Position numbers and translations under genes: made by a program. From Chryseobacterium phocaeense (GTDB lineage Bacteria; Bacteroidota; Bacteroidia; Flavobacteriales; Weeksellaceae), in contig NZ_LT827015.1 of NCBI RefSeq assembly GCF_900169075.1, forward strand, positions 2,062,158 to 2,126,157: DNA of 64,000 nucleotides. Reading direction: 5' to 3'. Positions 39,315 through 55,425 of this stretch are shown in pieces. How positions within the stretch are numbered: position 1 is the first letter of the stretch; every line of letters starts with the position of its first letter. The notes beneath the pieces are model-generated. The model was not told where the DNA came from and did not search any database. It was given only the letters and a program-made list of their open reading frames with translations.

Positions 39315-39346
39315 TGCAACTAAATTGCATTAGTAACAAAGTTGCA
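39315..39346 (+). promoter_or_regulatory. Two tandem Fur-type operators before the lanthipeptide biosynthesis operon
   Basis: Site 1 at 39315-39329 is TGCAACT-A-AATTGCA (outer 5-bp arms perfect). Site 2 at 39332-39346 is AGTAACA-A-AGTTGCA, with one intact half and identical centre. Both have the 7-1-7 geometry of Fur-family boxes. They end 49 bp before the exporter ATG. The same 15-bp element occurs at 48843, 53971, 54009, 54814 and 54852. Confidence 0.75.
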
Positions 39347-39394
39347 TTTTTAAAATTTATGGTTAACATCGAAATCTACGTTGCGTGATTGCCC

Positions 39395-41614
39395 ATGGAG
39401 AATAAAATACTGAGAAAAATTAGCCGTTTCTTCACAAGAAAACAATATCCTTTTTTCCGCCAGCTGGATACCATGGATTGCGGGCCCACCTGTCTGAAGA
39501 TGCTCGCAGCATTCTACGGAAGGCAATTATCCCTGAATCATCTGCGTGAACTCTGTGATGTGCACAGTCAGGGAACTTCTGTATCGGGTTTAACCCATGC
39601 TTCTGAAAATCTTGGTTTTAAAACCCTGGCTGCAGAATTAAGCCTTGAGGTATTATTAGAAAAAGCCCCGCTACCGTGTATCCTTCACTGGGATCACAAT
39701 CACTTTGTTGTATTATGGAATCTAAGCGGGACACATGCTTATGTCGGAAATCCTGCGCTGGGAAAGAATATGCGGTATACGATTCAGGATTTTAAGGAAC
39801 ACTGGAATGTACCCGGGCAGGAAGGTAAAGGTATAGCCCTCTTTGTGGAGCCTACGGAGGCTTTTAACCATATTCAGGATCAGCCGGATCCACCTGTCAG
39901 TCTAATTTCTTTGCTAAAACGGATAGACGACCGCAGGAATATTACGCTTGTCATTGCAGCGCTTCTGGCCGCTACCCTTCTCACATTGGCCATTCCCCTG
40001 TTAACACAGGCAGTTGTTGATCAGGCGGTTTCCAGAAAAGACATCGGACTTCTTTCCATTATCTGTGCAGGACAGCTTGTGCTCTTTAGCGGAAGAATTT
40101 TAACTGATTTTTTTCGCAGCCGGATTCTTTTTAAACTGGGAATGAATATCAGTATAAAACTGATCTATGAATTTGTAGACAAGCTTATGCAGCTGAAACT
40201 TTCCTTCTTTGATTACAGGAGCAGCGGAGACAATCTTCAAAGAATCTACGACAACCAACGGGTAGAGGAATTTCTTACGAAAAACTGTGTAAGCGCCGGA
40301 CTTTCCGTTATTATTCTTATGGTCAACGGCGGATTGCTGTGTTATTATAACTGGAAGCTTTTTATCCTGTTTCTGGCCGCCAGTACCATCAGTGTACTCT
40401 GGACCAATCTTTTTGAGGAAAAAAGAAGACGCCTCGACCAGCGTACCTTCAGCCTGCTGGCCAATGCCCAACGCCATCAGATAGAAACATTCGAAGCCAT
40501 GACCGAAATAAGGCTGACCGGTGCTGAACAGGAAAAAAACCAGCTGTGGAAAACCATGCAGGAGGAAACCTACCAGGTGAAAATGGAAAACCTGAAACTG
40601 GATCAGCGGATACAGGGCGTTGCTCTTTTTATCAACGAAACCACAGGGGTATTAACGACTTTTCTAACCGCATCTCTCGTGATCAACGGAAACCTGACCC
40701 TTGGCGCAATGCTTGCCATCACGTATATGTATGGTGCTCTGAACGGAACAGTCAACCAGTTATCAGACTTCATCCGTTCCATGCAGACCGCAAAATTCAG
40801 CCTGCAGCGCATCTCCGAAGTGGAAGTGGAAGAAACAGAAGATGCACACGCAACGCTGGCATTACCAAAAGGAAACTCCGGTTCCATCGAACTGGCAGAT
40901 GTGAGTTTCCGCTATGGAAAATTATCATCTGATGTTCTAAAGCACATATCACTGACCATTCCCGCCGGAAAAGTGACGGCTATTGTAGGTATGAGCGGAA
41001 GCGGAAAAACCACCCTTTTGAAACTGCTGCTTAAATTCTTCCATCCCACACAGGGAACCATCACGTTCTGCGGACAGGATCTGAAGCTGATCAATGCCAA
41101 AAGCCTTCGCAGACAATGTGGAGCGGTCATGCAGGATTCTTTCCTATTTACCGATACCATAGCCGGAAATATCTGGGTAGGAAGCCTGGAAAAAGATCTT
41201 AACAGGGTAAGAAATGCCTGTAAAATGGTCAATATGCAGGATTTTATTGAAAGCCTCCCCTTTTCCTATGATACCCAGATTGGCAGTGAAGGAACCGGCC
41301 TCAGCGAAGGCCAGAAACAGCGTCTTCTCATTGCAAGGCTCATCTACCGTGAACCTGATTACATATTTCTGGATGAAGCCACCAATTCCCTGGATGCTCA
41401 TAATGAAAAACTGATCGTAGAAAACCTGAACCGTTTTTTCCTGGGCAGAACGGTCGTTATCGTGGCGCACCGTCTGAGTACCGTAGTGCATGCTGACAAC
41501 ATTATAGTCCTGGACAAAGGAAATATTGTTGAACAGGGTAATCATGAATCTCTGACAAAATCAAAAGGAGCCTATTATCATTTAGTTAAAAATCAACTTG
41601 AACTTGGAAAATAA
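39395..41614 (+). CDS. Peptidase-containing ABC exporter for a lanthipeptide (LanT-type)
   Basis: About 739 residues from ATG 39395; a TTG two codons earlier is less likely. Domains: C39 peptidase (residues about 15-140; Cys in LDTMDCGPTCLKMLAAFYG, His in HWDHNHFVVLW), six-helix ABC transmembrane domain, and nucleotide-binding domain with Walker A GMSGSGKTT, signature LSEGQKQR and Walker B IFLDEAT. Role: cut the precursor after its Gly-Gly leader and export it. The usual catalytic Asp of the peptidase (D-P-A) is Asn in YVGNPALGKN. First gene of an operon; the LanB gene starts 11 bp after its stop. Controlled by the operators at 39315-39346. Confidence 0.93.
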   Translation: MENKILRKISRFFTRKQYPFFRQLDTMDCGPTCLKMLAAFYGRQLSLNHLRELCDVHSQGTSVSGLTHASENLGFKTLAAELSLEVLLEKAPLPCILHWDHNHFVVLWNLSGTHAYVGNPALGKNMRYTIQDFKEHWNVPGQEGKGIALFVEPTEAFNHIQDQPDPPVSLISLLKRIDDRRNITLVIAALLAATLLTLAIPLLTQAVVDQAVSRKDIGLLSIICAGQLVLFSGRILTDFFRSRILFKLGMNISIKLIYEFVDKLMQLKLSFFDYRSSGDNLQRIYDNQRVEEFLTKNCVSAGLSVIILMVNGGLLCYYNWKLFILFLAASTISVLWTNLFEEKRRRLDQRTFSLLANAQRHQIETFEAMTEIRLTGAEQEKNQLWKTMQEETYQVKMENLKLDQRIQGVALFINETTGVLTTFLTASLVINGNLTLGAMLAITYMYGALNGTVNQLSDFIRSMQTAKFSLQRISEVEVEETEDAHATLALPKGNSGSIELADVSFRYGKLSSDVLKHISLTIPAGKVTAIVGMSGSGKTTLLKLLLKFFHPTQGTITFCGQDLKLINAKSLRRQCGAVMQDSFLFTDTIAGNIWVGSLEKDLNRVRNACKMVNMQDFIESLPFSYDTQIGSEGTGLSEGQKQRLLIARLIYREPDYIFLDEATNSLDAHNEKLIVENLNRFFLGRTVVIVAHRLSTVVHADNIIVLDKGNIVEQGNHESLTKSKGAYYHLVKNQLELGK

Positions 41615-41625
41615 ACTTTGGAACA

Positions 41626-44274
41626 ATGAACCTGAATATCTTACCCTATATTTTCACCCGGTATGCAGCTTTACCCGTAAAGAGCTTACAAAAATTATCT
41701 TATTCAAACATTGAAGATCAATTAAATCAATGGGAAACTATGACGGAATATGTTCAATCCTGCAATGAAAAGCTGTGTGATCAATTGTACACTTTGATAC
41801 AGCAATCTTCCGATGATCAGGAAAGAAAACTTCTGCTGAATCTGAAGCGGTCGGTATTTAACAAACGGCAGAATGCAAGGGACTTAGCGGAAAAGATTCC
41901 TTCTGAGACGTTTGATTCCATTAAAAATTCATGGAACGAATGGCTGAATGCAGACCAAAAATATAAAGAGTTTGAGCAGCTTTGGGAAAAGGATTTCCAT
42001 AACCGGTTATGGTCGCACAGAAAAAATATTCAGGAGCTGGCCGGAGAGTATCCTTTTAAAAACGGAGTTCTTTTGTCCAGCAAAGATCTCTATGAACAGC
42101 TTGAAAATTTCAGGGATGCTGATGTACAGTCGTTGAGCAAAGACCAGGAACGCATGGAATTCAGTGTCCTGCGCTATCTTACCCGGATGGCTTATAAAAC
42201 CTCTCCTTTCAGCAGTTTCACCTATTTAGGGCTTACCGAAATAACCTCTGAAACGAGCCCAAAGGTTCATGATCCTGACACTCCAAACTGCAACATACGA
42301 CTGAATAATAAGCTTCTGAAACGCATAAAAAAACTCATGGAAAGACATCCGGATCTGCAGGGCTTATTGTTTGTGAACACCAACAGCAGCATCCTGGAAA
42401 CAGATAACCGTTTTAGTTTTCTCATGAACTGTGCCAATATTGAGGTCTTCCAGGAAATTCAGGCAGGAGGTGTGAACCGGTATATCAAAGAGCTTATCCA
42501 TGATGCTCAGGAGAATATTTCGCTGATATCACTTATTGAGCAGCTTTCAACACAAATTGAAGCGGATTTTTCGGAACTGAAACATTATGTTTTAAAACTG
42601 GTGGATTCAGGATTTCTGGAACTGACATTAGAATGTTCCGAGATCGATCCGGATTGGGACCGTCATCTTTTATCTTTCCTGGCCGGACACAAAAACGGCA
42701 ATAAAGCTGCAGAACAGCTCTGGCAGCTTGTTTCGAATCTCCGGGAAGCTAAAAATGCATTTGGAACGGCAGGAATAGCCCAACGGGAAATTCTTTTAAA
42801 GGAAAGCTCATCCCTGTTTGACCGGACTATTTCAGACCTTGAAAATCAGGCCGGAATCATTAAGCTTCCCAAAGATGAAATCCAGAATGTACTGGACTAC
42901 ATCCTCAATAAATACAGAAACGGAGAAGGTTTTGAAAAACTGCCTTACATTCCCGTTGATTACCGCCAGGAAGGATTTATCTACGAAGATACCTACACCA
43001 ACCAGATCAGTACCATCGATGAGAACACAGTGAACGGATTAGGACAACTATTATCAGATCTCTGCAACCGTTTATCTGCTTTTGATATACGTGCCGGGGG
43101 AAAAAACAGCGTCAAAAACTTTTTTACCACTACATACAGCAAGGATCAGCTGGTTCCTCTTATCACTTTCTACCATGAATATTACCGTTATAAAAATAAA
43201 TCCGATCTGGAAAATGAGCAGATTCAGGAAAATGTATGGTCAGATCTGTTCTGGAAAGACCTTCAACAGGAAGAACATCCGCTTGGTGAGATAAGGATTC
43301 GAATGAAGCATTTAAATGGTCTTCCCTCTTCAAATCAATCATGTCCGGCATGTTCTGCTTTTCTCCAGCTTTTTGACCAGTCATCTGTTACCGGAACAAA
43401 AGCCGTCGTGAATGGACTGATGCAGGGAATGGGCAAGATGAGCGGCAGGTTTCTTCACCTGTTTGATCCTGAAATCTCTGAAATACACCGGGAATATAAT
43501 AAACGCTTGTTTCCTGACCATCTGCTTCTGGAATTGAATGATGATTCCAGCTTTAATGCCAATATTCATCCGCCTTTACTGGATTATGAAGTGAAAATGC
43601 CGGCATCCAATACCCAAATGAAAAGATCCCAGCAGATCCCTTTGGAACGGATATCCGTTGCTTATAACGCTGATCAGGATAAGGTTTATTTGATAGATAC
43701 TGTCCTGAAAAAAGAAATCTATGCTTTTGACCTCTGCCTGGAAACCATTACCAACAGATCAAATCTTTATCAGCTGATGTCCCTGTTCAACCCCTGCACG
43801 TATGTCAGTTATCACCCTTTGATACAGGTTATCGACCGTAATTACGCTAAAGAATTAAGCCATGAAGCCATCCGGATGTTCCCAAGAATTATTTTTGAAG
43901 AAAAGCTGATCCTCCGCCGAAAAGGCTGGCTGATTGATCTCCAGGCCATTCCCCGCCAATCTAAAGAGGAAAACAGCAGTATTTATTTTCTTCGTTTCCA
44001 TCAGTGGCTGGCAAAAATTGATTTATCTACTTCAGTCTTTCTTTATCTGCAATCGTCTTATATTCCTGAAGATTCTTCCGCGGATAAAACTGCCGGAACC
44101 CGTGACGATTATAAGCCTCAGTATATTGATTTTAAGCAGCCTTTGTTATTTAACCTTTTCATTAAGCTGCTGAACCGGGCCGGATCCTTTATTTATACAG
44201 AAGAAGCTTTACCTTCCGTTGATCATGATCAAGAAAGAGTGGCAGAACACCTGATCCAATGGTATAATTTCTAA
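41626..44274 (+). CDS. Lanthipeptide dehydratase, glutamylation part (LanB N-terminal)
   Basis: 882 residues, a stand-alone Lant_dehydr_N protein. Role: tRNA-dependent glutamylation of Ser and Thr in the precursor, the first half of dehydration. Evidence: N-terminus PYIFTRYAALPVKSLQ resembles the family's RtPllP start; YLTRMAYKTSPFSSFTYLGL replaces the RaatRPTPFGLFAG signature; a long helical middle and a C-terminal PLERISVAYNADQDKVYLID beta region. The elimination domain is encoded by the next gene, 4 bp downstream, so the dehydratase is split, as known for pinensin- and thiopeptide-type systems. Confidence 0.88.
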   Translation: MNLNILPYIFTRYAALPVKSLQKLSYSNIEDQLNQWETMTEYVQSCNEKLCDQLYTLIQQSSDDQERKLLLNLKRSVFNKRQNARDLAEKIPSETFDSIKNSWNEWLNADQKYKEFEQLWEKDFHNRLWSHRKNIQELAGEYPFKNGVLLSSKDLYEQLENFRDADVQSLSKDQERMEFSVLRYLTRMAYKTSPFSSFTYLGLTEITSETSPKVHDPDTPNCNIRLNNKLLKRIKKLMERHPDLQGLLFVNTNSSILETDNRFSFLMNCANIEVFQEIQAGGVNRYIKELIHDAQENISLISLIEQLSTQIEADFSELKHYVLKLVDSGFLELTLECSEIDPDWDRHLLSFLAGHKNGNKAAEQLWQLVSNLREAKNAFGTAGIAQREILLKESSSLFDRTISDLENQAGIIKLPKDEIQNVLDYILNKYRNGEGFEKLPYIPVDYRQEGFIYEDTYTNQISTIDENTVNGLGQLLSDLCNRLSAFDIRAGGKNSVKNFFTTTYSKDQLVPLITFYHEYYRYKNKSDLENEQIQENVWSDLFWKDLQQEEHPLGEIRIRMKHLNGLPSSNQSCPACSAFLQLFDQSSVTGTKAVVNGLMQGMGKMSGRFLHLFDPEISEIHREYNKRLFPDHLLLELNDDSSFNANIHPPLLDYEVKMPASNTQMKRSQQIPLERISVAYNADQDKVYLIDTVLKKEIYAFDLCLETITNRSNLYQLMSLFNPCTYVSYHPLIQVIDRNYAKELSHEAIRMFPRIIFEEKLILRRKGWLIDLQAIPRQSKEENSSIYFLRFHQWLAKIDLSTSVFLYLQSSYIPEDSSADKTAGTRDDYKPQYIDFKQPLLFNLFIKLLNRAGSFIYTEEALPSVDHDQERVAEHLIQWYNF

Positions 44275-44278
44275 CCTT

Positions 44279-45145
44279 ATGGAAAAAATCTGGAAAACTT
44301 ACTATCTGTTTCACGAAAATCATGCAGACCCTGTACTGACTGGAGTTGTACATCCATTGATCCAAAATATTGAGAAAAAGCTGGAAAGAGAAGTCAAATT
44401 CTTCTTTATCCGTTATTTTGAAGGCGGTTATCACATCCGGCTGCGGCTGCTTCTGAATGCTGAGGAATGTATTATTTTCCTTTCTTTGCTGAAAGAGCAA
44501 ATCTCAGTTTATGAGGAGCTCAGCAAAAGCAGTTTGGTATTAAAGGAAGCTCAATACATCCCGGAAACAGACCGTTACGGTAATACGGAAACGATTACTT
44601 ATGCCGAAGACCAGTTTTATGCATCATCCCGTTTTATTCTGCATCATCTGGTTGAAAACAGCCCGTTATCAGCTTCTGAACGGTATCTTTTTGCTTTGAA
44701 AACGCATCTTGCTTTTTTTAAAGGCATGGAATTGTCTCAAAACCATATTCTGCAGCTGTGCGACCAGTTCGTGCAAAGCTGGCTTCCGGTACCGTTTTCA
44801 GAGAATCCCGATGAACAGGAACAAAACAGGAAAGATGTATTGGATGCTTTTCAAAATCAGTTTAATGCCTATCAGACCTTATTGGCTGAAAATCTTACAG
44901 AATTCTGGAATTCAACAGAGATGAGTGAAGATTTCTATTTGCAGCAATTTCTCACTTCAAACAGGAATGTTTTTGCAAACTATTCTCAATCCCGGCTGCC
45001 TCCTGAAGCCTTAGACGAAGCTTTACTCAGTTGTATCCATATGGCGAATAACCGTTTGGGAATAGTGAATGCCGAAGAATCCTATATCCTTTTTCTCATC
45101 ATGCGTATCATTCCTTTAATCAAAAACTATGGCGACAAATCCTGA
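44279..45145 (+). CDS. Lanthipeptide dehydratase, elimination part (SpaB_C/thiopeptide-type)
   Basis: 288 residues. The start IWKTYYLFHENHADPVL and the motif VKFFFIRYFEGGYHIRLRLLL are those of the SpaB_C / 'thiopeptide-type bacteriocin biosynthesis' domain, which eliminates glutamate from glutamyl-Ser/Thr to give dehydroamino acids. It lies 4 bp after the glutamylation gene and overlaps the LanC gene by 17 bp, which argues for translational coupling and a complex of the three. Confidence 0.9.
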   Translation: MEKIWKTYYLFHENHADPVLTGVVHPLIQNIEKKLEREVKFFFIRYFEGGYHIRLRLLLNAEECIIFLSLLKEQISVYEELSKSSLVLKEAQYIPETDRYGNTETITYAEDQFYASSRFILHHLVENSPLSASERYLFALKTHLAFFKGMELSQNHILQLCDQFVQSWLPVPFSENPDEQEQNRKDVLDAFQNQFNAYQTLLAENLTEFWNSTEMSEDFYLQQFLTSNRNVFANYSQSRLPPEALDEALLSCIHMANNRLGIVNAEESYILFLIMRIIPLIKNYGDKS

Positions 45146-47018: not shown

Positions 47019-47040
47019 AACTGTTATGAAGAATCAGAGA

Positions 47041-47126
47041 GGCTTCGACTCCGCTCAGCCTGACAATGAAATAGCCTCACACATAGTAGGAACGCTGTCA
47101 GGCTGAGCGGAGTCGAAGCCTTTTTT
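47041..47126. terminator. Long inverted repeat ending the lanthipeptide operon
   Basis: GGCTTCGACTCCGCTCAGCC(TGACA) at 47041-47065 is perfectly inverted at 47096-47120, followed by T6. It starts 22 bp past the cyclase stop codon. The arm sequence is a widespread intergenic palindrome in bacteria of this kind, so it may be a mobile element now serving as a terminator. Confidence 0.8.
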
Positions 47127-47136
47127 AATTATCTAC

Positions 47137-48478
47137 CCGCAATAATCCTTGAAAATCTGAGAAATCTGAGGGAGACAAAATATGAAACACAAAAGGGACA
47201 AAAGTTTTTAAACACTTCAGTAATTTGACGTTTAATTTTAGAATGCATAAAAGTTCACATAAGCTTTTTATTTATCATTCTACAAAATCTGCTGAATCTG
47301 TTTGATCCGCGAGAGATAAAAAATTGAACCATTAAGATGAAATTAAGGTTTTAAGAATATTAAGTTTAAGCTTCGCTTTAAGGAGTATCACTTAAAAATC
47401 TTTTAGATTTAACTTAACTAATCTTATCTCCTTCATTGATCTTAATGTTTCAAAAATATCCGCAATCATTTGTAGAAATCTGTGAAACCCGACGGAAATT
47501 AAATATTAACCACAAAAGGGACAAAAGTTTTTAAACACTTTAGTAATTTGAAGTTTAATATTAGAATGCATAAAAGTACACAGAAGCTTTAGAAAAAATC
47601 AAAGATTTTTATTCATTATCCTAAAAAATCTGCTCTATCTGTTTAATCTGCGAGAGATAAAAAATTTGAACCATTAAGATGAAATTAAGGTTTTAAGAAT
47701 ATTAAGTTTAAGCTTCGCTTTAAGGAGTATCATTTAAAAAATCTTTAGATTTCCCTTAACTAATCTTATCTCCTTCATTGATCTTAATGTTTCAAAAATA
47801 TCCGCAATCATTTGTGGAACCTGTGAAATCCGAGGGAAATAAAATATTAACCACAAAAGGGACAAAAGTTTTTAATCACTTTAATAATTGAAGTTTAATA
47901 TTAGAATGCATAAAAGTTAACAGAAGCTTTAGAAAAAATCAAAGATTTTTATTCAGCATTCTACAAAATCTGCTGAATCTCCTTGATCCGCGAGAGATAA
48001 AAAATTGAACAATTAAGATGAAATTAAGGTTTTAAGAATATTAAGTTTAGGCTTCGCTTTAAGGAGTATCACTTAAAAAATCTTTTAGATTTCCCTTAAC
48101 TAATCTTATCCCCTTCATTGATCTTAATGTTTCAAAAATATCCGCAATCATTTGTAGAAATCTGTGAAACCCGAGGGAAATTAAATATTAACCACAAAAG
48201 GGACAAAAGTTTAAACACTTTAGTAATTTGAAGTTTAATTTTAGAATGCATAAAAGTTAACAGAAGCTTTAGAAAAAATCAAAGATTTTTATTCATTATC
48301 CTAAAAAATCTGCTGAATCTCCCTGATCCGCGAGATATAAAAAATTGAACCATTAAGATGACATTAAGGTTTTAAGAATATTAAGTTTAAGCTTCGCTTT
48401 AAGGAGTATCACTTAAAAATCTTTTAGATTTAACTTAACTAATCTTATCTCCTTCATTGATCTTAATGTTTCAAAAAA
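47137..48478. repeat. Four-copy tandem repeat, unit about 340 bp
   Basis: Units start at 47137, 47460, 47802 and 48142, at CCGCAATMAT. Each contains ACCACAAAAGGGACAAAAG, a GAATGCATAAAAGTTMACA piece, AAAATCAAAGATTTTTATTC, CTGMTCCGCGAGAGATAAAA, and a pair of imperfect inverted arms (CCATTAAGATGAAATTAAGG ... TTCATTGATCTTAATG). No coding frame. It fills the gap between the biosynthesis operon and the precursor gene. Confidence 0.88.
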
Positions 48479-48521
48479 AGTATATTTTACTAAACATTTT
48501 TAACTCTCCTGTTCATCACAT

Positions 48522-48553
48522 AAAAAAGGCCGCTTTACGAATAAAGCAGCCCC
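48522..48553 (-). terminator. Terminator of the lanthipeptide precursor gene
   Basis: On the minus strand GGCTGCTTTA-TTCG-TAAAGCGGCC forms a 10-bp stem (one G-T pair) with a TTCG tetraloop followed by T6. It starts 21 bp after the precursor stop codon. Confidence 0.88.
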
Positions 48554-48573
48554 TAATGAGTCTCTTCCTATAA

Positions 48574-48768
48574 TTAGCACTGAACAGTTCCGCAAACGTG
48601 AAGTCTGTCCTGAGTTTTTATAGTGTGAGTCGGGTGATCATGGTCTCCTGCAGGAGAAATTCCCAAACCACCTTGTAATTTTTTGGACAGATCTTTGTCC
48701 AGTGCTGTTACGAAGCTTTCGATTTTAAGATCCTCGATGTTTAGCTTCATTTTTTTGTTGTTTTCCAT
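48574..48768 (-). CDS. Class I lanthipeptide precursor with His/Asp/Cys-rich core
   Basis: 64 residues from ATG 48768; an upstream extension of the frame to 48858 runs through the operator and is not coding. The leader MENNKKMKLNIEDLKIESFV with the SFVTALD block is the Bacteroidota class I lanthipeptide type (consensus L-N-[LI]-x-x-L-K-[VI]-x-S-F-V-T-x-L-D). Cleavage is expected after Gly33-Gly34. The 30-residue core holds Thr47, Thr49, Thr52, Thr61 and Ser38 as dehydration sites, Cys59 and Cys64 for two rings, and a DHDHPTH stretch plus His57. It has its own operator and terminator, and lies downstream of the TonB receptor gene. Confidence 0.92.
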   Translation of the reverse strand: MENNKKMKLNIEDLKIESFVTALDKDLSKKLQGGLGISPAGDHDHPTHTIKTQDRLHVCGTVQC

Positions 48769-48824
48769 AATAAAACATTTTTTAATTGGGCCTACTCTAT
48801 AAGGTTTTCGGCTTTCCCTTGTTG

Positions 48825-48857
48825 TAAAGATACGTATTTTATTGCAACAAAGTTGCA
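48825..48857 (-). promoter_or_regulatory. Fur-type operator and probable promoter of the precursor gene
   Basis: 48843-48857 is TGCAACA-A-AGTTGCA, six of seven arm positions paired, the best copy in the locus. Downstream on the minus strand TATCTTTA (48825-48832) fits the Bacteroidota -7 element TAnnTTTG with one change, and a TTTG lies inside the operator about 15 nt upstream of it. A repressor bound here would cover the -33 region. The operator is 75 nt upstream of the precursor ATG. Confidence 0.75.
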
Positions 48858-48865
48858 TTTAAATG

Positions 48866-51052
48866 TTAAAATTTCACTCCTATTTGAAATTTAAAATTGA
48901 AAGGGTTACTTTCCTTATACATCCAGGATTCTCCTACCACAGCAGACCAATCGGCATTGTATCTCGCCTGTACATTTCCGTCTGTGATATAACGTTTATT
49001 GGTCAGGTTATCAAAGATTCCGCGGACAAACCATTTTTTGTACTGATACATAATGCTGGCATCCAGCTTTATAAAATCCGGGATACGAACCCCGGGAACA
49101 TCGGTTTCACGAACCATTGCAGCGGCCTCTCCTAAAGCCAGGGAAAGTCCGTTCAGTTTTCCTTTCTGGAATTTGTACATTACCCAGGCATTAAGCTGAT
49201 GTCTTGGAACACTTGAAAACCTTTGCCCTACAAGTTCAGACGCATAAGGATCTTTGGAGTATACAGAATTGATGTAGGAATAGTTTGCCGTTAAAGTAAT
49301 ATTCGGATAAATAGAACCGATCACATCAATTTCTATCCCTTGATTTCTCACCTGATTGAGCTGGGTCATCAGACCTGTTGCCGGATTTTGTGAGAACGAG
49401 TTATTCCTGATAATCCTGTACGCACTTACCGAAGTTGACAAAATACCATCAAACCAGTCCTTTTTCAATCCGAATTCCGTATTGTAGCTTTCCAGCGGTT
49501 TCCATTCTTTTCCCTGCGGATCCGTTCCAGCCATAGGATCAAAACTTTGGTCGTAGGAAAAGTAAGCTGCAAAATCTTTTTGGATCAGATAAGTGACCCC
49601 AACCCTTGGATTAAAGGCATGGTGTCTGTATATTTTGCTATCTCCGTCGGGAGAATAAGGACCTTTAAGATAACGTTCCCGCCTGTTTTCACTGTAACGG
49701 AACCCCGCATCAACAATTAAACGGTTCCAGAATCTGAATGTATTATAAACATAGCCGCCTATTGTTTTGTCCTGTGAAGTCGTATAATCAATCTGGTCAT
49801 CAGCTTCAGGCTGGGTCAGAAGGTCACGGTCAATTCCATAATTCAGTTCATTTCGGTTAAAAACAAACTTGTTAATCCCCTGGATATGTTCCGTATCGCT
49901 TTTACTGCTGTTAAAATCTATTCCGGCCAGCACGGTATGCACAATCTTCGGACTTATACTATATTTTCCACTGACAAACAGCTGGGTATTGTATGTAAGG
50001 TATTTCTGCTTATTTCTGAGGCTTGAACGGAGTGCATTCCCTGCATCATCAAATATAGGCGGAGTGTAGCCCGTTTCCCCGAGAATACTCCACTGGTCCA
50101 ATGGTGTACTTTTAATGGAAGACTGGGAAATTATTTTCCATTGATCATTCAGCTGATGCTGGAACACCAATCTTCCGTAATGTTCGTCAAGTTTTGAAGT
50201 GGGCAAATTGGGATCCCCCTGGTAATTGGCATTCCAGGGATGCTTCTGAACCCTGTTTTCAGTTTCATACTGGATAAAATTACTTGATTCCATGGCTCTG
50301 CCTAAAATCATGTTCCATTCTGCAAGCAGGAATGTGTTTTTACTGATATTATACTGAACAACGGGTGCTACCACGAACTTCCTGCGTTTGGCATATTCAG
50401 CATGATAGCCCTGGGATTCATAAGCAGCATTGAACCGGAAAGAAAACCCTTTCTCCTTCACTGCACTTCCAAGGTCTACAGCAGCCCTGTAAAATCCAAA
50501 ACTTCCCGCAGTAATAGTAGCTTCTCCGATTCTGTGATTCCGGGGTGCCTTGGTATTGATATTTAAAGATCCTCCTCCTGTTCCCATGGAATTAACGAAA
50601 CCTGCTGGACCCTTGATGACATCCACCTGCTCTATCAGCGAAACATCCTCCTGTGAAAGACCTCCTGCAAATGAAGGAAGCCCATTCCTGAATGTACTCA
50701 CCGGACTGAATCCCCGCAACTGGGCATTGAAAGTGCCTGCAAAAACATTTCCTGCACCTGTAGCATCGCTGATGTAAATTCCGCTGACATTCCGTAACGC
50801 GTCCTGAGCATCGAAAGCTCCCTGAAGATTAAGCAGATTGCTTTTGATGCTGACAATATTCTGGGGAATTTCCAGCAGCTTATCATTCCGTTTCAGGTTT
50901 TCGGAAAGGCTGTCTGTTTTGATCTGCTTCATAGCCGTGAGGATGACCTCATCTATTTTCTCCGCAGCAACAGAGTCTTTTTTCTCCTGAGCATCCGTTA
51001 AAGAAAACATTCCCAAAAGGACAGCCGCCACCAGGACGTAGTTCTTCTTCAT
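48866..51052 (-). CDS. TonB-dependent siderophore-type receptor
   Basis: 728 residues. Signal peptide MKKNYVLVAAVLLGMFSLTDA, a TonB-box-like IDEVILTA, a plug domain (DALRNVSGIYISDATGAGNV ... QLRGF ... LIEQVDVIKGPAGFVNSMG), then a 22-strand barrel ending NPFNFKFQIGVKF. The plug pattern is that of siderophore receptors. Established role of the family: energised uptake of metal chelates across the outer membrane. It starts 11 bp after the second permease gene and ends 97 bp before the lanthipeptide precursor, so it belongs to the operator-controlled leftward operon. The ligand is unknown; the locus peptide is the obvious candidate. Confidence 0.93.
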   Translation of the reverse strand: MKKNYVLVAAVLLGMFSLTDAQEKKDSVAAEKIDEVILTAMKQIKTDSLSENLKRNDKLLEIPQNIVSIKSNLLNLQGAFDAQDALRNVSGIYISDATGAGNVFAGTFNAQLRGFSPVSTFRNGLPSFAGGLSQEDVSLIEQVDVIKGPAGFVNSMGTGGGSLNINTKAPRNHRIGEATITAGSFGFYRAAVDLGSAVKEKGFSFRFNAAYESQGYHAEYAKRRKFVVAPVVQYNISKNTFLLAEWNMILGRAMESSNFIQYETENRVQKHPWNANYQGDPNLPTSKLDEHYGRLVFQHQLNDQWKIISQSSIKSTPLDQWSILGETGYTPPIFDDAGNALRSSLRNKQKYLTYNTQLFVSGKYSISPKIVHTVLAGIDFNSSKSDTEHIQGINKFVFNRNELNYGIDRDLLTQPEADDQIDYTTSQDKTIGGYVYNTFRFWNRLIVDAGFRYSENRRERYLKGPYSPDGDSKIYRHHAFNPRVGVTYLIQKDFAAYFSYDQSFDPMAGTDPQGKEWKPLESYNTEFGLKKDWFDGILSTSVSAYRIIRNNSFSQNPATGLMTQLNQVRNQGIEIDVIGSIYPNITLTANYSYINSVYSKDPYASELVGQRFSSVPRHQLNAWVMYKFQKGKLNGLSLALGEAAAMVRETDVPGVRIPDFIKLDASIMYQYKKWFVRGIFDNLTNKRYITDGNVQARYNADWSAVVGESWMYKESNPFNFKFQIGVKF

Positions 51053-51063
51053 TTTTTCAATAT

Positions 51064-52512
51064 TTATTGTTTAAATTTTCTGATGAATACCAATCCTCCG
51101 GTGAAGCATATCACACTAACGATCCATACAGCCAAAATCCCGTATACGAAATCTGAGATGCTGATGCTGTGATACTTCAAGGTGAACGAAGGAAGTGTTT
51201 TAAGTTCATCCGGCGAGAATCCGGAAAGGGTTCTTTTACCATTCTTTACGGAAAAGACCTTATCAAAAAAACGGGTCTGCCATACCTTCTGAAAATCTTT
51301 TACATCCTGTTTGTACCTGGAATAATCAGCTCTGCTTGTACGCGCCAAAAGGGTAAAAAGATGTTCCGTACTCTGAACGGGATTGTATTTTATAAGCCTG
51401 AGTGCCATCTGATTGGCATTGTTATCACCTTTCCACAGAGAATCAATGACGGCTTTCATCCGTTTCTGCTTGATGTAATAATAGCCTGCAAAAAAAGCAT
51501 CGTTCTGATTATCAATTGTGTCTGAAGGAGTATACACGGAAGCATACTCCGGGAAGTTCCTGTAAAAACTGTCCACAACCATTTTAGGTTTCATCGCCCA
51601 GACCTCATCACTGATCTGCCTGTCCTTTTCCTCAAGGTCCAGAAGTTTAAGATCCGACGGATACTTCATCTGTGCAGTTTTGTTGATGAGCAAAGGAAGC
51701 AGGAACAAAAAGAAAATCCAGAATGCCATACATGAGAATAAATTGAATACACTGTTCCTATCCATTGAAATAATAAGAAAACACAGTGCAAACCATAACA
51801 CAGTATATGAAAAAACCAAAAAGCACCACATAAAGGCATCCTGGAATGAGGGAGCACCTGACGGAGACAAGAGCATCCCTGAAATATTAATCAGCAAGGC
51901 GGCTGAAAAAACAATAATCAGCCGGGACAGTAATTTCCCAAACAGAACCCGTTTCAGGGTGCCGCCCTGAACAATCAGCAGACTGCTGATCCCTTTTTCT
52001 TTTTCGGAAGAAATCACATTGTATACCAGTACAATAATCAATAACGGAATCAGATAAAGGTTAACATACACCAGATCCAGCCGTCCTTCAAAAAGTATGG
52101 CTGGGTTAGTCATTTCCCTATCTACAGAAGCATAATCCGTATAATAATTTACTTTTTCCGAAACCGGGGTAATGTCTTTTATTCCGGTGGCAAGACCGGT
52201 AAGAGGATAGGGATTGTCATAAGCAATGCGGGGAAATCTGTAATCTATGACGTATGGATTTCCTGCATTCTCTGCCTGCTGTTTTTTCTCAACACTTGCC
52301 GTATCTGTAAAAGCAAGCAGTGTATTGCGGTAGTCCTTGAGCGATTCTTTTTTAGCCTCCTGGATGGCATTCAGTTTCTTTTGAGTAAGTACATTCCCTG
52401 AATACACAGCATATCCTCCAATCACAAAGAAGAAAAAAAACAGGGTCCACACTGCCGGCTGCCGGAAAATATGCTTCCACTCGTATAAGAAAAGCACCAT
52501 CTTATCCTTCAT
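51064..52512 (-). CDS. ABC-2 type permease subunit (second)
   Basis: 482 residues. One N-terminal helix (FFFFFVIGGYAVYSGNVL), a large periplasmic domain, then a block of helices beginning with ISSEKEKGISSLLIVQGGTL, the cytoplasmic coupling loop of NosY-type ABC-2 permeases, and a last helix near the C-terminus. Its start overlaps the end of the first permease gene by 11 bp. Together with the ATPase at 54093 it makes an ABC transporter of the LanFEG or Nos type. Direction of transport cannot be read. Confidence 0.88.
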   Translation of the reverse strand: MKDKMVLFLYEWKHIFRQPAVWTLFFFFFVIGGYAVYSGNVLTQKKLNAIQEAKKESLKDYRNTLLAFTDTASVEKKQQAENAGNPYVIDYRFPRIAYDNPYPLTGLATGIKDITPVSEKVNYYTDYASVDREMTNPAILFEGRLDLVYVNLYLIPLLIIVLVYNVISSEKEKGISSLLIVQGGTLKRVLFGKLLSRLIIVFSAALLINISGMLLSPSGAPSFQDAFMWCFLVFSYTVLWFALCFLIISMDRNSVFNLFSCMAFWIFFLFLLPLLINKTAQMKYPSDLKLLDLEEKDRQISDEVWAMKPKMVVDSFYRNFPEYASVYTPSDTIDNQNDAFFAGYYYIKQKRMKAVIDSLWKGDNNANQMALRLIKYNPVQSTEHLFTLLARTSRADYSRYKQDVKDFQKVWQTRFFDKVFSVKNGKRTLSGFSPDELKTLPSFTLKYHSISISDFVYGILAVWIVSVICFTGGLVFIRKFKQ

Positions 52513-53932
52513 AGCTTACATAATTTCGTTTGATAATGATCATGAATGAAAAGATTAATGCTCCCATCCAAAGCAACAATGAAAAAACTGCTGCTGTATG
52601 ATCTTTAATAACAGCTCCCACAGAAGGAAATTCGTACCTGAATTCAGGAAGGCTGCTGTAAAAATCTTTATTGCTCAACCGGCCTTTTTCAGATATGGCA
52701 AGTTCCAGTTCCCGCTGATTAAGCCGGTCCATGGTTGCATTTCTGTATAATTCGGCCTTATTGAAAAAATCAATATGATGGGAAACGTCAGTTCCTGCAA
52801 AAGCCATAGAAAGCTGCTGCACGGCAATAAACGGATTCAGAATTCCCATAGCATCTATAAACGTCTGCTGCTGCTCAAATTTCGCTTCCACCTTTTTGGA
52901 ATAGTATCGGTTCACTCTGTTTTCATAGGCTTCTGCCTGGATAAGGTCCAGGGCAAATCTGATCTTCTCGGGCAATTGGCTGATGCTGTCTGCATGAAAC
53001 TGTTTCAGGTGTTTTTTGAGATAGGTCTCAGACCGTGTTGTGTATTCACCATCATTTCCAAGTCCTTTATCGAAACCGGTTTTAATCTGATGTTCAAATT
53101 CATGGTAGGACGGCAGCGGATATTTTCCATCAGCCGCAGAGCTGCTGAACTTTGGAATCAGAAGAACACATAAGATCCACACGGTAATACAGGCCATCAG
53201 TGAAGACCATGAGGAACGGCTGAATGCTGAAATCAAAAGCACCACCCCGGAAATAAGAAAGAAATAAACCGCATATAAGCTGATCCAGCACAAAGCCCTG
53301 ACCAGATGATTTAAAGGTTCATTTTCATAAATCAAGCCTCCGATCATTATTAAAAAAGGAGGAATCGTGAATAAAAGAACTGCCAGATAAAGCGCTATGA
53401 ATTTTCCGGTAACCAGATGTCCCAGTGATGCGCCCTGAACGGATAAAAGCTTTAAGAAACCTTTTTCACGTTCGGACGAGATAGACGAAAATCCCAAACC
53501 AATGATGAATAACGGCATCAGCCACTGAAAAAAAAATGCAGTATTAAGGTCCGGCCTCCTCATAAAAGCCTGAAGATCCGGCAGTCTGTATGAATGTAAT
53601 TGCGGACGCTTGTGGGCTTCCACTCTGTAATAATTTTCTGAATAAATGCCTGTTCCCGATTCCAGAAGGGAGAGATAATTCACCGGTTTAAAAAGGAAAG
53701 TTCCCCAGTGTGCTGCGCTGTGATTTTCCCGGTTCTGTTCTTTCCATTCTTTATCGATAGCCTCTTTTGCCTGGTTATTTTTGAACGAAGCGGTCCGCAG
53801 CTGTGCATAATTGCTTCCCCAGACTCCCAGCAAAATCAGAATATAAAACACGACGAATATTTTCAGTCCGTTTTCACGAAATGCCCTGAATTCCTGCTGA
53901 GCTACGAAAGTTATAATTTTTAGGTTCGTCAT
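52502..53932 (-). CDS. ABC-2 type permease subunit (first)
   Basis: 476 residues, same architecture as its neighbour: N-terminal helix (FVVFYILILLGVWG), long periplasmic loop, coupling loop ISSEREKGFLKLLSVQGASL, several helices, a second soluble loop and a C-terminal helix. A paralogue of the second permease. First gene of the operon perm1-perm2-TonB receptor. Two Fur-type operators lie 39-91 bp upstream of its start. Confidence 0.88.
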   Translation of the reverse strand: MTNLKIITFVAQQEFRAFRENGLKIFVVFYILILLGVWGSNYAQLRTASFKNNQAKEAIDKEWKEQNRENHSAAHWGTFLFKPVNYLSLLESGTGIYSENYYRVEAHKRPQLHSYRLPDLQAFMRRPDLNTAFFFQWLMPLFIIGLGFSSISSEREKGFLKLLSVQGASLGHLVTGKFIALYLAVLLFTIPPFLIMIGGLIYENEPLNHLVRALCWISLYAVYFFLISGVVLLISAFSRSSWSSLMACITVWILCVLLIPKFSSSAADGKYPLPSYHEFEHQIKTGFDKGLGNDGEYTTRSETYLKKHLKQFHADSISQLPEKIRFALDLIQAEAYENRVNRYYSKKVEAKFEQQQTFIDAMGILNPFIAVQQLSMAFAGTDVSHHIDFFNKAELYRNATMDRLNQRELELAISEKGRLSNKDFYSSLPEFRYEFPSVGAVIKDHTAAVFSLLLWMGALIFSFMIIIKRNYVSYEG

Positions 53933-53970
53933 TTATTATATTCAAAAATGCTGAGTAAGTCAATTACTAT

Positions 53971-54023
53971 TGCAACATTGTAGCAAAAATAAACATTATT
54001 TTAAATAACGCAACATTATTGCA
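53971..54023 (-). promoter_or_regulatory. Pair of Fur-type operators before the permease/receptor operon
   Basis: TGCAACA-T-TGTAGCA at 53971-53985 and CGCAACA-T-TATTGCA at 54009-54023, each with one outer mismatch from the inverted-repeat consensus. The two start points are 38 bp apart, the same distance as in the pair at 54814/54852. Confidence 0.72.
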
Positions 54024-54092
54024 ATAAATAATTGTAATTTTCCTCTGTCTATATTGTATCAGTACTTCTGGTAATGCCCAATGGAAGCTGAA

Positions 54093-54794
54093 TCAGCCAT
54101 GCATATAATCCAGGTATATTTTTTCAAGCTCGCCGGCTGTTACGCCTTCTGTATTCATTTCTTTAACCAAAATCCCGTTTTTGAGAATTCCGATACGGCT
54201 GCAGGTTTCCCTGACCCTGAAAATATCATGGGATGCCATTAAAATAGCAGCTCCTTCATCGGCCAATTTTTTAAGCAAAGCAGAAAGTTCATTGCTTGCC
54301 ATAGGATCCAGGCCGCTTGCAGGTTCATCCAACAGGTATACTTTAGCTTTTTTTGCATAGGCAATGGCAATACCAACCTTCTGTCTCATTCCTTTAGAAT
54401 AGGCACCTGTCTTTTTATGATGAGCATCCTTTTGGAGCCCGCAATCCGAAAGAATACCGGAAAGTTCTTCTGTCGTATAGTCCCTGCCTGCCAGCTTACA
54501 GAAATAGTAAAGGTTTTCGATTCCTGTTAAATAGGGGTAGAGGTTTACATTTTCAGGAATATATCCGATCATTTCCCTCGCTTTTCCGGCATCGGTGCTT
54601 GTATTGACATAATTGATCGTAATGGTCCCGGTATCCGGCTTTAAGAAGCCCAGCAGCATATTCAGTGTGGTGGATTTACCGGCTCCGTTCGGGCCAAGAA
54701 GTCCGTAGATTTCTCCTTCTTTCACAGCCAGGGAGAGCTCTGTTACAGCCCTTTTACCATTATAGGATTTGCTTGTATTATCTATTTTAATCAT
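54093..54794 (-). CDS. ABC transporter ATP-binding protein
   Basis: 233 residues. Walker A GPNGAGKST, signature YSKGMRQKVG, Walker B VYLLDEPASGLDP, switch His in ASHD. Sequence style is that of NosF/LanF-type ATPases working with ABC-2 permeases. It lies 160 bp upstream of the first permease gene with an operator pair between them, so it may have its own transcript, and it shares a divergent promoter region with the Fur-family gene. Probable motor for the two permeases. Confidence 0.93.
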   Translation of the reverse strand: MIKIDNTSKSYNGKRAVTELSLAVKEGEIYGLLGPNGAGKSTTLNMLLGFLKPDTGTITINYVNTSTDAGKAREMIGYIPENVNLYPYLTGIENLYYFCKLAGRDYTTEELSGILSDCGLQKDAHHKKTGAYSKGMRQKVGIAIAYAKKAKVYLLDEPASGLDPMASNELSALLKKLADEGAAILMASHDIFRVRETCSRIGILKNGILVKEMNTEGVTAGELEKIYLDYMHG

Positions 54795-54813
54795 AGTTTA
54801 ATAATTCCGTTAA

Positions 54814-54866
54814 TGCAATATTGTTTCAAAAATAAAGATTATATTTGTTACTGCAACAATATGGCA
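54814..54866. promoter_or_regulatory. Pair of Fur-type operators in the ATPase/regulator divergent promoter
   Basis: TGCAATA-T-TGTTTCA at 54814-54828 and TGCAACA-A-TATGGCA at 54852-54866, each with one or two departures from TGCAACA-W-TGTTGCA. Start points are 38 bp apart. Location between the ATPase gene and the regulator gene indicates autoregulation and control of the ATPase. Confidence 0.72.
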
Positions 54867-54895
54867 TTAATTATATTGAAATTTATTCAGAAAAC

Positions 54896-55276
54896 ATGAA
54901 ACAGTCGAGAAATACAATAGCTAGAAAAGAGATCACAAGGCTCATCCACGAATCCGGGATAGCATTGTCTCATGCGGAGTTGCAGGTTCTATTGGATGGG
55001 CTCTGCGACCGTGTTACCACCTACAGGGTGCTGGAGAGATTAATGGATGAAGGGGTTATCCATAAAGTAGTGGATATAGACGGAACCCTTAAGTATGCCG
55101 AATGTCATACCTGTACCACAGAAATTCACCATCATGATCATCTGCATTTCAGCTGTGAGCAATGCAAGACGGTGACCTGTGTGGAGGATGTGGAACCTAA
55201 AATTAAATTACCGGTAAACTATAAGGTTCATAAGATTAACCTGACGGTTTCCGGAATCTGCCCTAACTGCCAGTAA
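54896..55276 (+). CDS. Fur-family metalloregulator (Zur-like by inference)
   Basis: 126 residues from ATG 54896; the open frame reaches back to 54845 through an operator and is not coding. N-terminal winged helix (LSHAELQVLLDGLCDRVTTY, recognition helix in RVTTYRVLERLMDEGVIHKV), then the metal/dimer domain: HHHDHLHFSCEQC with Cys87/Cys90 and the terminal CPNC with Cys122/Cys125, the structural zinc site. The His cluster at 78-84 is the usual regulatory metal region. Whether it senses zinc, iron, copper or peroxide cannot be fixed from sequence; size and Cys pairs fit Zur well. It sits in the lanthipeptide locus, and its box is in all promoters of the locus. Confidence 0.88.
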   Translation: MKQSRNTIARKEITRLIHESGIALSHAELQVLLDGLCDRVTTYRVLERLMDEGVIHKVVDIDGTLKYAECHTCTTEIHHHDHLHFSCEQCKTVTCVEDVEPKIKLPVNYKVHKINLTVSGICPNCQ

Positions 55277-55299: not shown

Positions 55300-55425
55300 G
55301 TTTTTAACCATTAAGATCATTGAAGAAATTAAGAATATTAAGATGAGCTTTGCTTTATTAAAAATCTTTATGATTTTTCTTAACTTACCTTCACTTCTTC
55401 AATGATCTTAATGGTTTAATCCAAA
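55300..55425. repeat. Inverted-repeat element, about 120 bp
   Basis: AACCATTAAGATCATTGAAG and CTTCAATGATCTTAATGGTT are perfect 20-bp ends. AAATTAAGAATATTAAG and CTTAACTT-type inner arms and GAGCTTTGCTTT follow. The interior matches the second half of the 340-bp units at 47.1-48.5 kb. It lies between convergent regulator and dGTPase genes. Confidence 0.8.

What the first reader, a model, noticed from the sequence alone, without database searches (positions are those of the whole stretch)
39315..55276. One Fur-type operator marks all promoters of a lanthipeptide locus
Seven copies of a 15-bp 7-1-7 inverted repeat, consensus TGCAACA-W-TGTTGCA, lie at 39315, 39332, 48843, 53971, 54009, 54814 and 54852. 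They fall only in the promoter regions of the LanT-LanB-LanC operon, the precursor gene, the permease/TonB receptor operon and the divergent ATPase/Fur-family regulator. Geometry is the one known for Fur-family boxes. I infer that the regulator at 54896 represses the whole locus when its metal is plentiful. A metal-starvation-induced class I lanthipeptide system is, to my knowledge, not a standard entry in RiPP classification.
Basis: partly seen in the sequence, partly recalled or inferred. Interest (0 to 1): 0.95.

Follow-up and report, generated by a model that had tools for sequence, protein, structure and literature searches.

The report
Zinc-switched lanthipeptide with zinc-free cyclase
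In a Chryseobacterium-type bacterium the switches of a peptide-making gene cluster carry the same DNA mark as metal genes that are likely zinc genes in relatives, and its ring-forming enzyme has lost the amino acids that normally hold zinc, so the peptide is likely made when zinc runs short and is predicted to fetch zinc for the cell.

Summary
The seven boxes are real and lie where stated. A matrix trained only on boxes outside lanthipeptide clusters ranks them 1 to 7 in the 64 kb. They recur at the LanT, precursor and permease promoters of all 16 clusters I read, those of the 16 receptor-bearing genomes among 320 of the family. The same box, often in 36-40 bp pairs, stands before MerC / COG0523-GTPase genes beside orthologous regulators, in the same register to the -7 element as at the ATPase and permease promoters. 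The regulator has a Zur-like Cys/His site. A Zur-type switch is well supported; zinc itself, DNA binding and repression were not tested at the bench. The precursor core is nearly invariant and His/Cys-rich, the receptor's closest solved relatives are pyochelin and pseudopaline receptors, and the LanC of all 16 clusters has lost the zinc triad (Cys-Cys-His to Ala-Phe-Ser), as metal-free class III cyclases have. Best reading: a zinc-starvation-induced pinensin-family lanthipeptide, likely a zinc scavenger, made by a cyclase that would need no zinc. Ten searches of an open library showed no such system. New variant of a known kind.

The parts
39315..39329 (.). operator box 1 of the LanT promoter
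   Evidence: a box in 17 of 17 aligned LanT promoters
39332..39346 (.). operator box 2 of the LanT promoter, 17 bp from box 1
   Evidence: second box within 3 mismatches in 11 of 17
39395..41614 (+). LanT: C39 peptidase / ABC exporter
   Evidence: Pfam PF03412, PF00664, PF00005
41626..44274 (+). LanB glutamylation part (split dehydratase)
   Evidence: PF04738 E 1.6e-36; PDB 6ec7
44279..45145 (+). LanB elimination part
   Evidence: PF14028, TIGR03891
45129..47018 (+). LanC-like cyclase, zinc triad replaced by A286, F334, S335; about 200-residue C-terminal extension
48574..48768 (-). LanA precursor, 64 aa, pinensin leader, GG site, core with HDHPTH and HVCGTVQC
   Evidence: NF038180 43.8 bits, cut-off 24
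48825..48832 (-). -7-like element TATCTTTA of the LanA promoter (one base off TAnnTTTG)
48843..48857 (.). operator box of the LanA promoter
   Evidence: 16 of 16 orthologous promoters
48866..51052 (-). TonB-dependent receptor, siderophore type
   Evidence: TIGR01783 226.8 bits, cut-off 223.5; PDB relatives 3qlb, 6i96/6i97, 6z8a
51064..52512 (-). ABC-2 permease 2
   Evidence: PF12679
52502..53932 (-). ABC-2 permease 1, DUF3526
   Evidence: PF12040, PF12679
53971..53985 (.). operator box of the permease promoter, start side
53984..53991 (-). -7 element TATTTTTG of the permease promoter
   Evidence: TAnnTTTG consensus in PMC9723704
54009..54023 (.). operator box of the permease promoter, upstream side, 38 bp from its partner
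54093..54794 (-). ABC ATPase
   Evidence: PF00005 E 2.9e-31
54814..54828 (.). operator box between ATPase and regulator
54827..54834 (-). -7 element TATTTTTG of the ATPase promoter
54840..54847 (+). -7 element TATATTTG of the regulator promoter
54852..54866 (.). operator box between ATPase and regulator, 38 bp from its partner
54896..55276 (+). Fur-family regulator, Zur-like ligand set (H56, C70, H78, H82, H84, C95; CxxC at 87/90 and 122/125)
   Evidence: PF01475

Best explanation
The promoters of this lanthipeptide locus carry the same operator as MerC/COG0523-GTPase operons of relatives, so a Zur-type regulator likely represses the locus while zinc is plentiful, and when zinc is scarce the secreted peptide is predicted to capture zinc and return through the TonB receptor of the locus. 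Steps: (1) zinc-loaded regulator would sit on boxes over the upstream element and the start region of the promoters and block them (geometry shown, binding inferred). (2) Zinc loss would open five promoters together: LanT-LanB-LanC, precursor, permease/receptor, ATPase, regulator (inferred). (3) The split LanB would dehydrate Thr/Ser of the core, and a LanC without zinc ligands would close the thioether rings without metal, in the way of class III cyclases, so that the pathway runs in zinc-starved cells (triad loss shown, activity inferred). (4) LanT would cut after Gly-Gly and export the peptide (inferred from family). (5) The His/Cys-rich core would bind zinc and be taken up by the receptor; the ABC-2 ATPase and permeases would serve uptake, release or self-protection (inferred, least certain).
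For: Operators. Conservation: boxes at the LanT, LanA and permease promoters in 16 of 16 clusters, and at the ATPase promoter in 15 of 16 at 3 or fewer mismatches; in G022, where the LanT-B-C operon stands on the other side of the regulator, its promoter has both boxes (L143). Register: the -7 element lies +25 and -13 bp from the two box centres in 14 of 15 ATPase promoters; in 16 of 16 permease promoters it lies -13 from the near box with the upstream box at +25 to +27; and +23 to +27 and -13 in 10 of 11 promoters of MerC, a non-homologous gene. Zinc link: of 15 related-regulator loci read, 9 have MerC, 6 a COG0523 GTPase, 8 an alkaline phosphatase nearby (Pfam); COG0523 and Zur are linked in PMC2770081. 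Own genome: the MerC / alkaline-phosphatase promoter has the same 15-mer as the precursor. Regulator swap: 12 of 12 genomes with the first-group regulator show no second-group one, 4 of 4 cluster genomes without an intact local regulator have a second-group one, beside MerC and COG0523 in two. Sensor site: C70 aligns with Cys88 of E. coli Zur, the most conserved site-B residue among Zurs (PMC4219657). Peptide: 16 of 16 cores keep H45, H48, H57, C59, C64; dN 0.02 in 4 of 4 pairs against 0.17-0.29 for LanC in 3. LanC triad lost in 16 of 16 clusters, one clade, while full-length LanCs in six box-free places keep it: two in this genome, G084, G405, G748, G790. Receptor relatives include pseudopaline receptor CntO. 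Secretion: a pinensin-family peptide was reported in culture supernatant of C. herbae (PMC10459008); the matching genome G062 has one NF038180 hit, this precursor.
Against: No binding, metal or expression data. The genome encodes a second short Fur-family protein with a similar ligand set (L023), so the sensor is not unique. 8 of 22 second-group regulators lack a box within 120 bp, and 2 of 11 more distant paralogs have one. The promoters of second-group regulators themselves use another register (8 of 8); the LanA promoter has only a near-consensus -7 element and none was found for LanT. NCBIfam's Zur model scores 35.8 bits against a cut-off of 167, and the Pfam FUR match is just above cut-off and below it. 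No classical zinc importer or zinc-free ribosomal paralogue was seen beside the 15 genomic sites whose neighbours I opened. The receptor model is named for siderophores, so iron is possible. The ATPase also resembles lantibiotic-protection ATPases. The lan-free ATPase-permease-receptor set of L070 has no box before its receptor gene. Zinc-free LanCs occur in Chitinophaga, where I could not see whether the clusters carry boxes. One box-free control locus holds, besides its full LanC, a partial LanC-like protein without the triad region (L090).
Confidence: 0.58

Rival explanations
1. The peptide is an antimicrobial or antifungal weapon released under zinc starvation to hit competitors; ATPase and permeases are self-protection, and the receptor imports something else.
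For: The leader is of the pinensin family, whose founder is antifungal; the ATPase matches TIGR03740 lantibiotic protection at 165.6 bits, below its cut-off of 309.75. C. herbae showed weak inhibition of a fungus (PMC10459008).
Against: The core hardly varies across two genera (dN 0.02), unlike a weapon in an arms race. The precursor gene directly follows a siderophore-type receptor. A related ATPase-permease-receptor set (25-52% identity) occurs without lan genes near regulators of the family and an alkaline phosphatase (L070).
Confidence: 0.2
2. The same circuit senses another metal (iron, manganese or copper), and the peptide chelates that metal.
For: The receptor model is named for ferric siderophores; the regulator also scores on Fur and PerR models, and PerR 6dk4 ties with Zur 3mwm in structure; two second-group regulators of another family neighbour an Nramp transporter (L073 by Pfam, L086 by likeness).
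Against: MerC and COG0523 neighbours, a Cys in the sensor site, the His/Cys core and a cyclase without zinc ligands point to zinc.
Confidence: 0.17
3. The LanC-like protein is no longer a cyclase; the product keeps free Cys thiols and binds metal through Cys and His like a zinc-finger peptide.
For: All three zinc ligands are gone in 16 of 16 clusters; PMC3091789 gives CHG in 98% and WCYG in 95% of type 1 LanCs.
Against: In metal-free ThurKC the residues there are Ser, Phe, Asp, and the Phe is needed for cyclization (PMC10604976); here the same position is Phe. LanC is under purifying selection (dN/dS 0.11-0.14 in the two pairs where dS could be estimated) and has a confident LanC fold.
Confidence: 0.25
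4. The boxes are chance or belong to an unrelated factor.
For: At 3 mismatches the genome holds 130 matches, 35 for the reversed pattern.
Confidence: 0.02

Closest known systems
Zur (zinc uptake regulator) regulons
   Same: Fur-family regulator with Cys-containing sensor site, inverted-repeat operator, boxes at its own promoter, COG0523 GTPase and TonB receptor among predicted targets
   Different: operator TGCAAC-N3-GTTGCA, paired boxes flanking the -7 element, and a lanthipeptide pathway among the targets
Pinensin family class I lanthipeptides (Chitinophaga, Bacteroidota)
   Same: leader model NF038180, Gly-Gly site, split LanB, LanM-like LanC, C39 exporter (the split LanB and LanM-like LanC of pinensins by PMC7268733 passages)
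   Different: His-rich invariant core, metal-type operators, receptor in the locus, zinc-free LanC (the core and LanC of pinensin itself were not seen)
Class III LanKC cyclases (ThurKC)
   Same: LanC fold without the zinc triad, Phe at the second ligand position
   Different: separate protein of a class I pathway with LanB; Ala-Phe-Ser instead of Ser-Phe-Asp
RiPP metallophores (methanobactin, bufferin)
   Same: ribosomal modified peptide predicted to bind metal (the named families by recall and PMC12636315 passages)
   Different: no MNIO enzyme among the ten proteins scanned; thioether chemistry; zinc rather than copper predicted
Opine zincophores (pseudopaline, staphylopine)
   Same: metal-starvation-induced synthesis, export and, for pseudopaline, a TonB receptor (recalled); CntO is among the closest solved receptors
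   Different: ribosomal peptide in place of a nicotianamine-like opine

Membership tests
Zur subfamily of Fur | FUR domain and fold | tested here: met
Zur subfamily of Fur | structural CxxC...CxxC site | tested here: met
   C87, C90, C122, C125 invariant in 24 of 24 rows; C87 lost in one of 23 rows
Zur subfamily of Fur | Cys in the sensor site (E. coli Cys88) | tested here: met
   C70 invariant in 23 of 23 and 24 of 24 rows, aligned; PMC4219657 passages
Zur subfamily of Fur | curated Zur model NF008646 | tested here: inconclusive
   best of four hits at 35.8 bits, cut-off 167; the other three, Fur and PerR models, are also far below cut-off
Zur subfamily of Fur | zinc-dependent operator binding | not testable with these tools
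   needs a gel shift
Class I lanthipeptide cluster | LanB-type dehydratase and LanC-type cyclase | tested here: met
   PF04738, PF14028, PF05147
Class I lanthipeptide cluster | zinc triad in LanC (usual, not used to define the class) | tested here: not met
   Ala, Phe, Ser in 16 of 16 clusters
Class I lanthipeptide cluster | lanthionine rings in the product | not testable with these tools
   needs mass spectrometry
Pinensin family | pinensin leader | tested here: met
   NF038180 43.8 bits, cut-off 24
Pinensin family | antifungal activity | not tested
   weak inhibition reported for C. herbae (PMC10459008)
Metallophore system | export plus TonB receptor under the same metal-type operator as synthesis | tested here: met
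Metallophore system | product binds metal and feeds it to the cell | not testable with these tools
   needs binding and uptake assays
Lantibiotic immunity LanFEG | curated LanF model TIGR03740 above cut-off | tested here: not met
   165.6 bits, cut-off 309.75; the two permeases hit no LanE/LanG model
MNIO metallophores | MNIO enzyme in the locus | tested here: not met
   none among the ten proteins scanned

The most novel reading that the evidence does not exclude
A lanthipeptide zincophore: a ribosomal peptide scavenges zinc under Zur control, and its class I cyclase has shed its own zinc site, turning metal-free, so that the rings can be closed exactly when zinc is missing. It would be both a first lanthipeptide with a zinc-uptake role and a first zinc-free class I LanC.
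Probability: 0.42. Interest if true: 0.93.

Novelty: new variant of a known kind. Interest (0 to 1): 0.82.

Why it matters
Lanthipeptides are known mainly as antibiotics and signals (recalled). A metal-regulated one with its own receptor would give the class a nutritional role. The zinc-free LanC clade (34 of 111 rows; 33 in the tree) gives a natural test of how lanthionine rings form without metal; the passages I saw name only class III for this. The operator also gives a matrix for finding zinc regulons in Flavobacteriales; my two searches for one showed none.

Tried and rejected
Chance or unrelated motif: rejected. G022 as a receptor-only cheater: rejected, its LanT-B-C operon lies on the other side of the regulator. 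LanFEG immunity: curated model below cut-off. Chitinophaga test: a phylum sample (3 of 395 genomes matched, this one included) and a search of the family of G405 (3 of 79 matched) did not reach Chitinophaga; the three other LanCs found, in G405, G748 and G790, keep Cys-Cys-His and have no box at 3 mismatches in the few kb held. I could not name the family of G405. NF038180 in the phylum sample: 4 of 395 genomes, this one included. Tree of regulators: the two groups are clades, their order is unresolved. In the structure look-ups only Fur-family and LanC matches that cover most of a domain were used; the C-terminal extension of LanC (about 430-629) was barely tested. Papers: none of the listings of ten searches (only the top 15-40 of each were listed) showed a lanthipeptide under zinc control; the library lacks most subscription papers and all bioRxiv-only preprints, and I did not see the original pinensin paper.
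Full report
Observation. The locus is as described, with LanB in two genes: LanT 39395, LanB 41626 and 44279, LanC 45129, precursor 48768 (minus), receptor, two permeases, ATPase and the regulator 54896. The precursor matches the pinensin leader model NF038180.

More than chance. A 21-bp matrix trained on 34 boxes (27 distinct) next to regulator genes outside lanthipeptide clusters puts the seven sites at ranks 1 to 7 of the window with 15.6 to 27.7 bits; the next scores 5.8. In 200 simulated 64-kb sequences there are 0.065 sites on average at the weakest score, and the best single site reached 22.9 bits. In the whole genome the 15-bp pattern has 130 places at 3 mismatches (35 for the reversed control pattern) but only 4 at one mismatch; a 21-bp pattern has three perfect hits, two in this locus and one at the MerC / alkaline-phosphatase promoter, and 24 at up to two mismatches (control 5), all seven boxes among them. 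I looked at the neighbours of six sites and of nine and saw no classical zinc importer. The two other lanthipeptide loci of this genome (37 kb) have no box at 3 mismatches and best scores of 9.2 and 7.2.

Conservation. The receptor is present at 82% or more in 16 of 320 family genomes, and I read the cluster in all 16. The LanA promoter has its box in 16 of 16 and the permease promoter its boxes in 16 of 16. A LanT promoter box is there in 17 of 17, the seventeenth being the remnant of a deleted cluster in G004, with two boxes within 3 mismatches in 11. The ATPase/regulator region keeps boxes at 3 mismatches in 15 of 16; in G213 they have drifted further. In G022 the LanT operon stands on the other side of the regulator with its two boxes. 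The twelve loci found in the named collection belong to Chryseobacterium (11) and Elizabethkingia miricola (1).

Same switch as likely zinc genes. The regulator has orthologs at 48-61% in much of the genus. Of 15 related-regulator loci read (14 at 50-61%, L085 at 39%), 9 have MerC, 6 a COG0523 GTPase and 8 an alkaline phosphatase within about 4.5 kb (Pfam). A box lies within 120 bp upstream of 15 of 15 first-group regulators, 14 of 22 second-group and 2 of 11 distant paralogs; downstream 0 of 15, 1 of 22, 5 of 11. The -7 element (TAnnTTTG, PMC9723704 passages) lies +25/-13 from the two box centres in 14 of 15 ATPase promoters; -13 from the near box, with the upstream box at +25 to +27, in 16 of 16 permease promoters; and +23 to +27/-13 in 10 of 11 MerC promoters, the eleventh, in this genome, having one box at +27. 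First-group regulator promoters have +19/-19 in 15 of 15, but second-group regulator promoters have another register in 8 of 8. The LanA promoter has a near-consensus TATCTTTA, and no -7 element was found for LanT.

Regulator exchange. In one search none of the 12 genomes with a first-group regulator appears among the listed second-group rows. Four cluster genomes lack an intact first-group gene: G213, G220, G258, and G257 with a stop-bearing remnant; all four have a second-group one elsewhere, beside MerC and COG0523 in G213 and G220, while neither showed in the about 1.5 kb on either side in G257 and G258. G047 and G067 keep the first-group regulator with its boxes but show no cluster in the 18 kb read. 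The two regulators thus seem interchangeable, which ties the cluster to the MerC/COG0523 regulon. This is inference.

Sensor. By alignment to E. coli Zur, H56, C70 and C87/C90/C122/C125 match His77, Cys88 and the structural cysteines named in PMC4219657 (passages). C70, H82 and H84 are invariant in 23 of 23 rows. The model (pLDDT 86.2) matches Zur and PerR alike, so the fold does not decide the metal. A second short paralog in this genome has a similar site.

The peptide. In 16 of 16 precursors HPTH, HVC and the last Cys are kept, and a further His in 15 of 16. Its dN is 0.02 in four pairs that have dS 0.14 to 1.6, against 0.06-0.11 for the receptor in the same four and 0.17-0.29 for LanC in three. 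Contig region 7.1 of C. herbae in PMC10459008 coincides with locus L180; that paper reports a pinensin-family peptide in the supernatant, and the genome with that contig length (G062) has one NF038180 hit, so it is likely this precursor. The passages I saw do not state the metal content of the medium.

The cyclase. Against LicM2 and the two other full-length LanCs of the genome the triad Cys, Cys, His is Ala286, Phe334, Ser335, in 16 of 16 clusters. Among 111 LanC rows (109 found, the window and G084) the triad is CCH in 69, CCC in 6, AFS in 27, ACS in 5, ACN in 2, MAT in 1 and not aligned in 1. Nine rows were dropped for the tree; the 33 zinc-less rows left form one side of a branch with support 100. 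The box-free pinensin-type cluster of G084, which keeps CCH, has four precursors with few His; three further LanCs outside the family keep CCH. One box-free locus here (L090) also holds a partial LanC-like protein, matching only positions 8-97 of the 350-position profile, without the triad region. In ThurKC the residues are Ser, Phe, Asp, and replacing the Phe or the Asp stops cyclization (PMC10604976 passages), so the Phe here speaks for a working metal-free cyclase. PMC10604976 calls the ligands otherwise strictly conserved. Zinc-free ribosomal paralogues are a common part of Zur regulons (PMC5912738 passages). The association of triad loss and boxes rests on one evolutionary event, and the Chitinophaga branch was not tested.

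Verdict. A metal switch of the Zur type over a whole lanthipeptide locus is strongly supported by sequence. Zinc as the metal is likely. The zincophore role and the metal-free cyclase are predictions with direct tests.

Papers: PMC9723704, PMC11960050, PMC7268733, PMC2770081, PMC10459008, PMC4219657, PMC12328550, PMC10604976, PMC11251773, PMC3091789, PMC9248904, PMC12636315 and PMC5912738 were seen as passages only; all others as search listings.

Noticed in passing
window 47171-48477: Direct repeats, four copies about 340 bp apart, between LanC and the precursor gene; similar-looking sequence follows the regulator near 55300-55420 (by eye).
   Followed up: partly
window 47039-47122: Two complementary arms of about 27 bp followed by a run of T after LanC, terminator-like, seen by eye; the repeat tool with a 40-bp minimum did not list it.
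   Followed up: no
L063 (G004): The cluster is deleted from mid LanT to the start of permease 1 while ATPase, regulator and boxes remain.
   Followed up: no
L148 (G220, Chryseobacterium sp. CH21): LanC reading frame is interrupted although the rest of the cluster looks intact.
   Followed up: no
L112 (own genome C4:2268458): A one-mismatch site of the 21-bp pattern lies about 50 bp upstream of a secreted protein that looks like a chitin-binding LPMO (recalled).
   Followed up: no
L083 and L084 (other families of the order): Related regulators stand near paired boxes beside a receptor-like gene and His-motif lipoproteins (DUF4625 by Pfam in L083), perhaps another zinc uptake set.
   Followed up: partly
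L070 (G040): ATPase, two permeases and a receptor related to those of the locus (25-52%) occur without lan genes, between two regulators of the same family and next to an alkaline phosphatase; no box before the receptor gene.
   Followed up: partly
L001 (own genome C4:1324126): A one-mismatch box about 45 bp before a long secreted peptidase-like gene.
   Followed up: no
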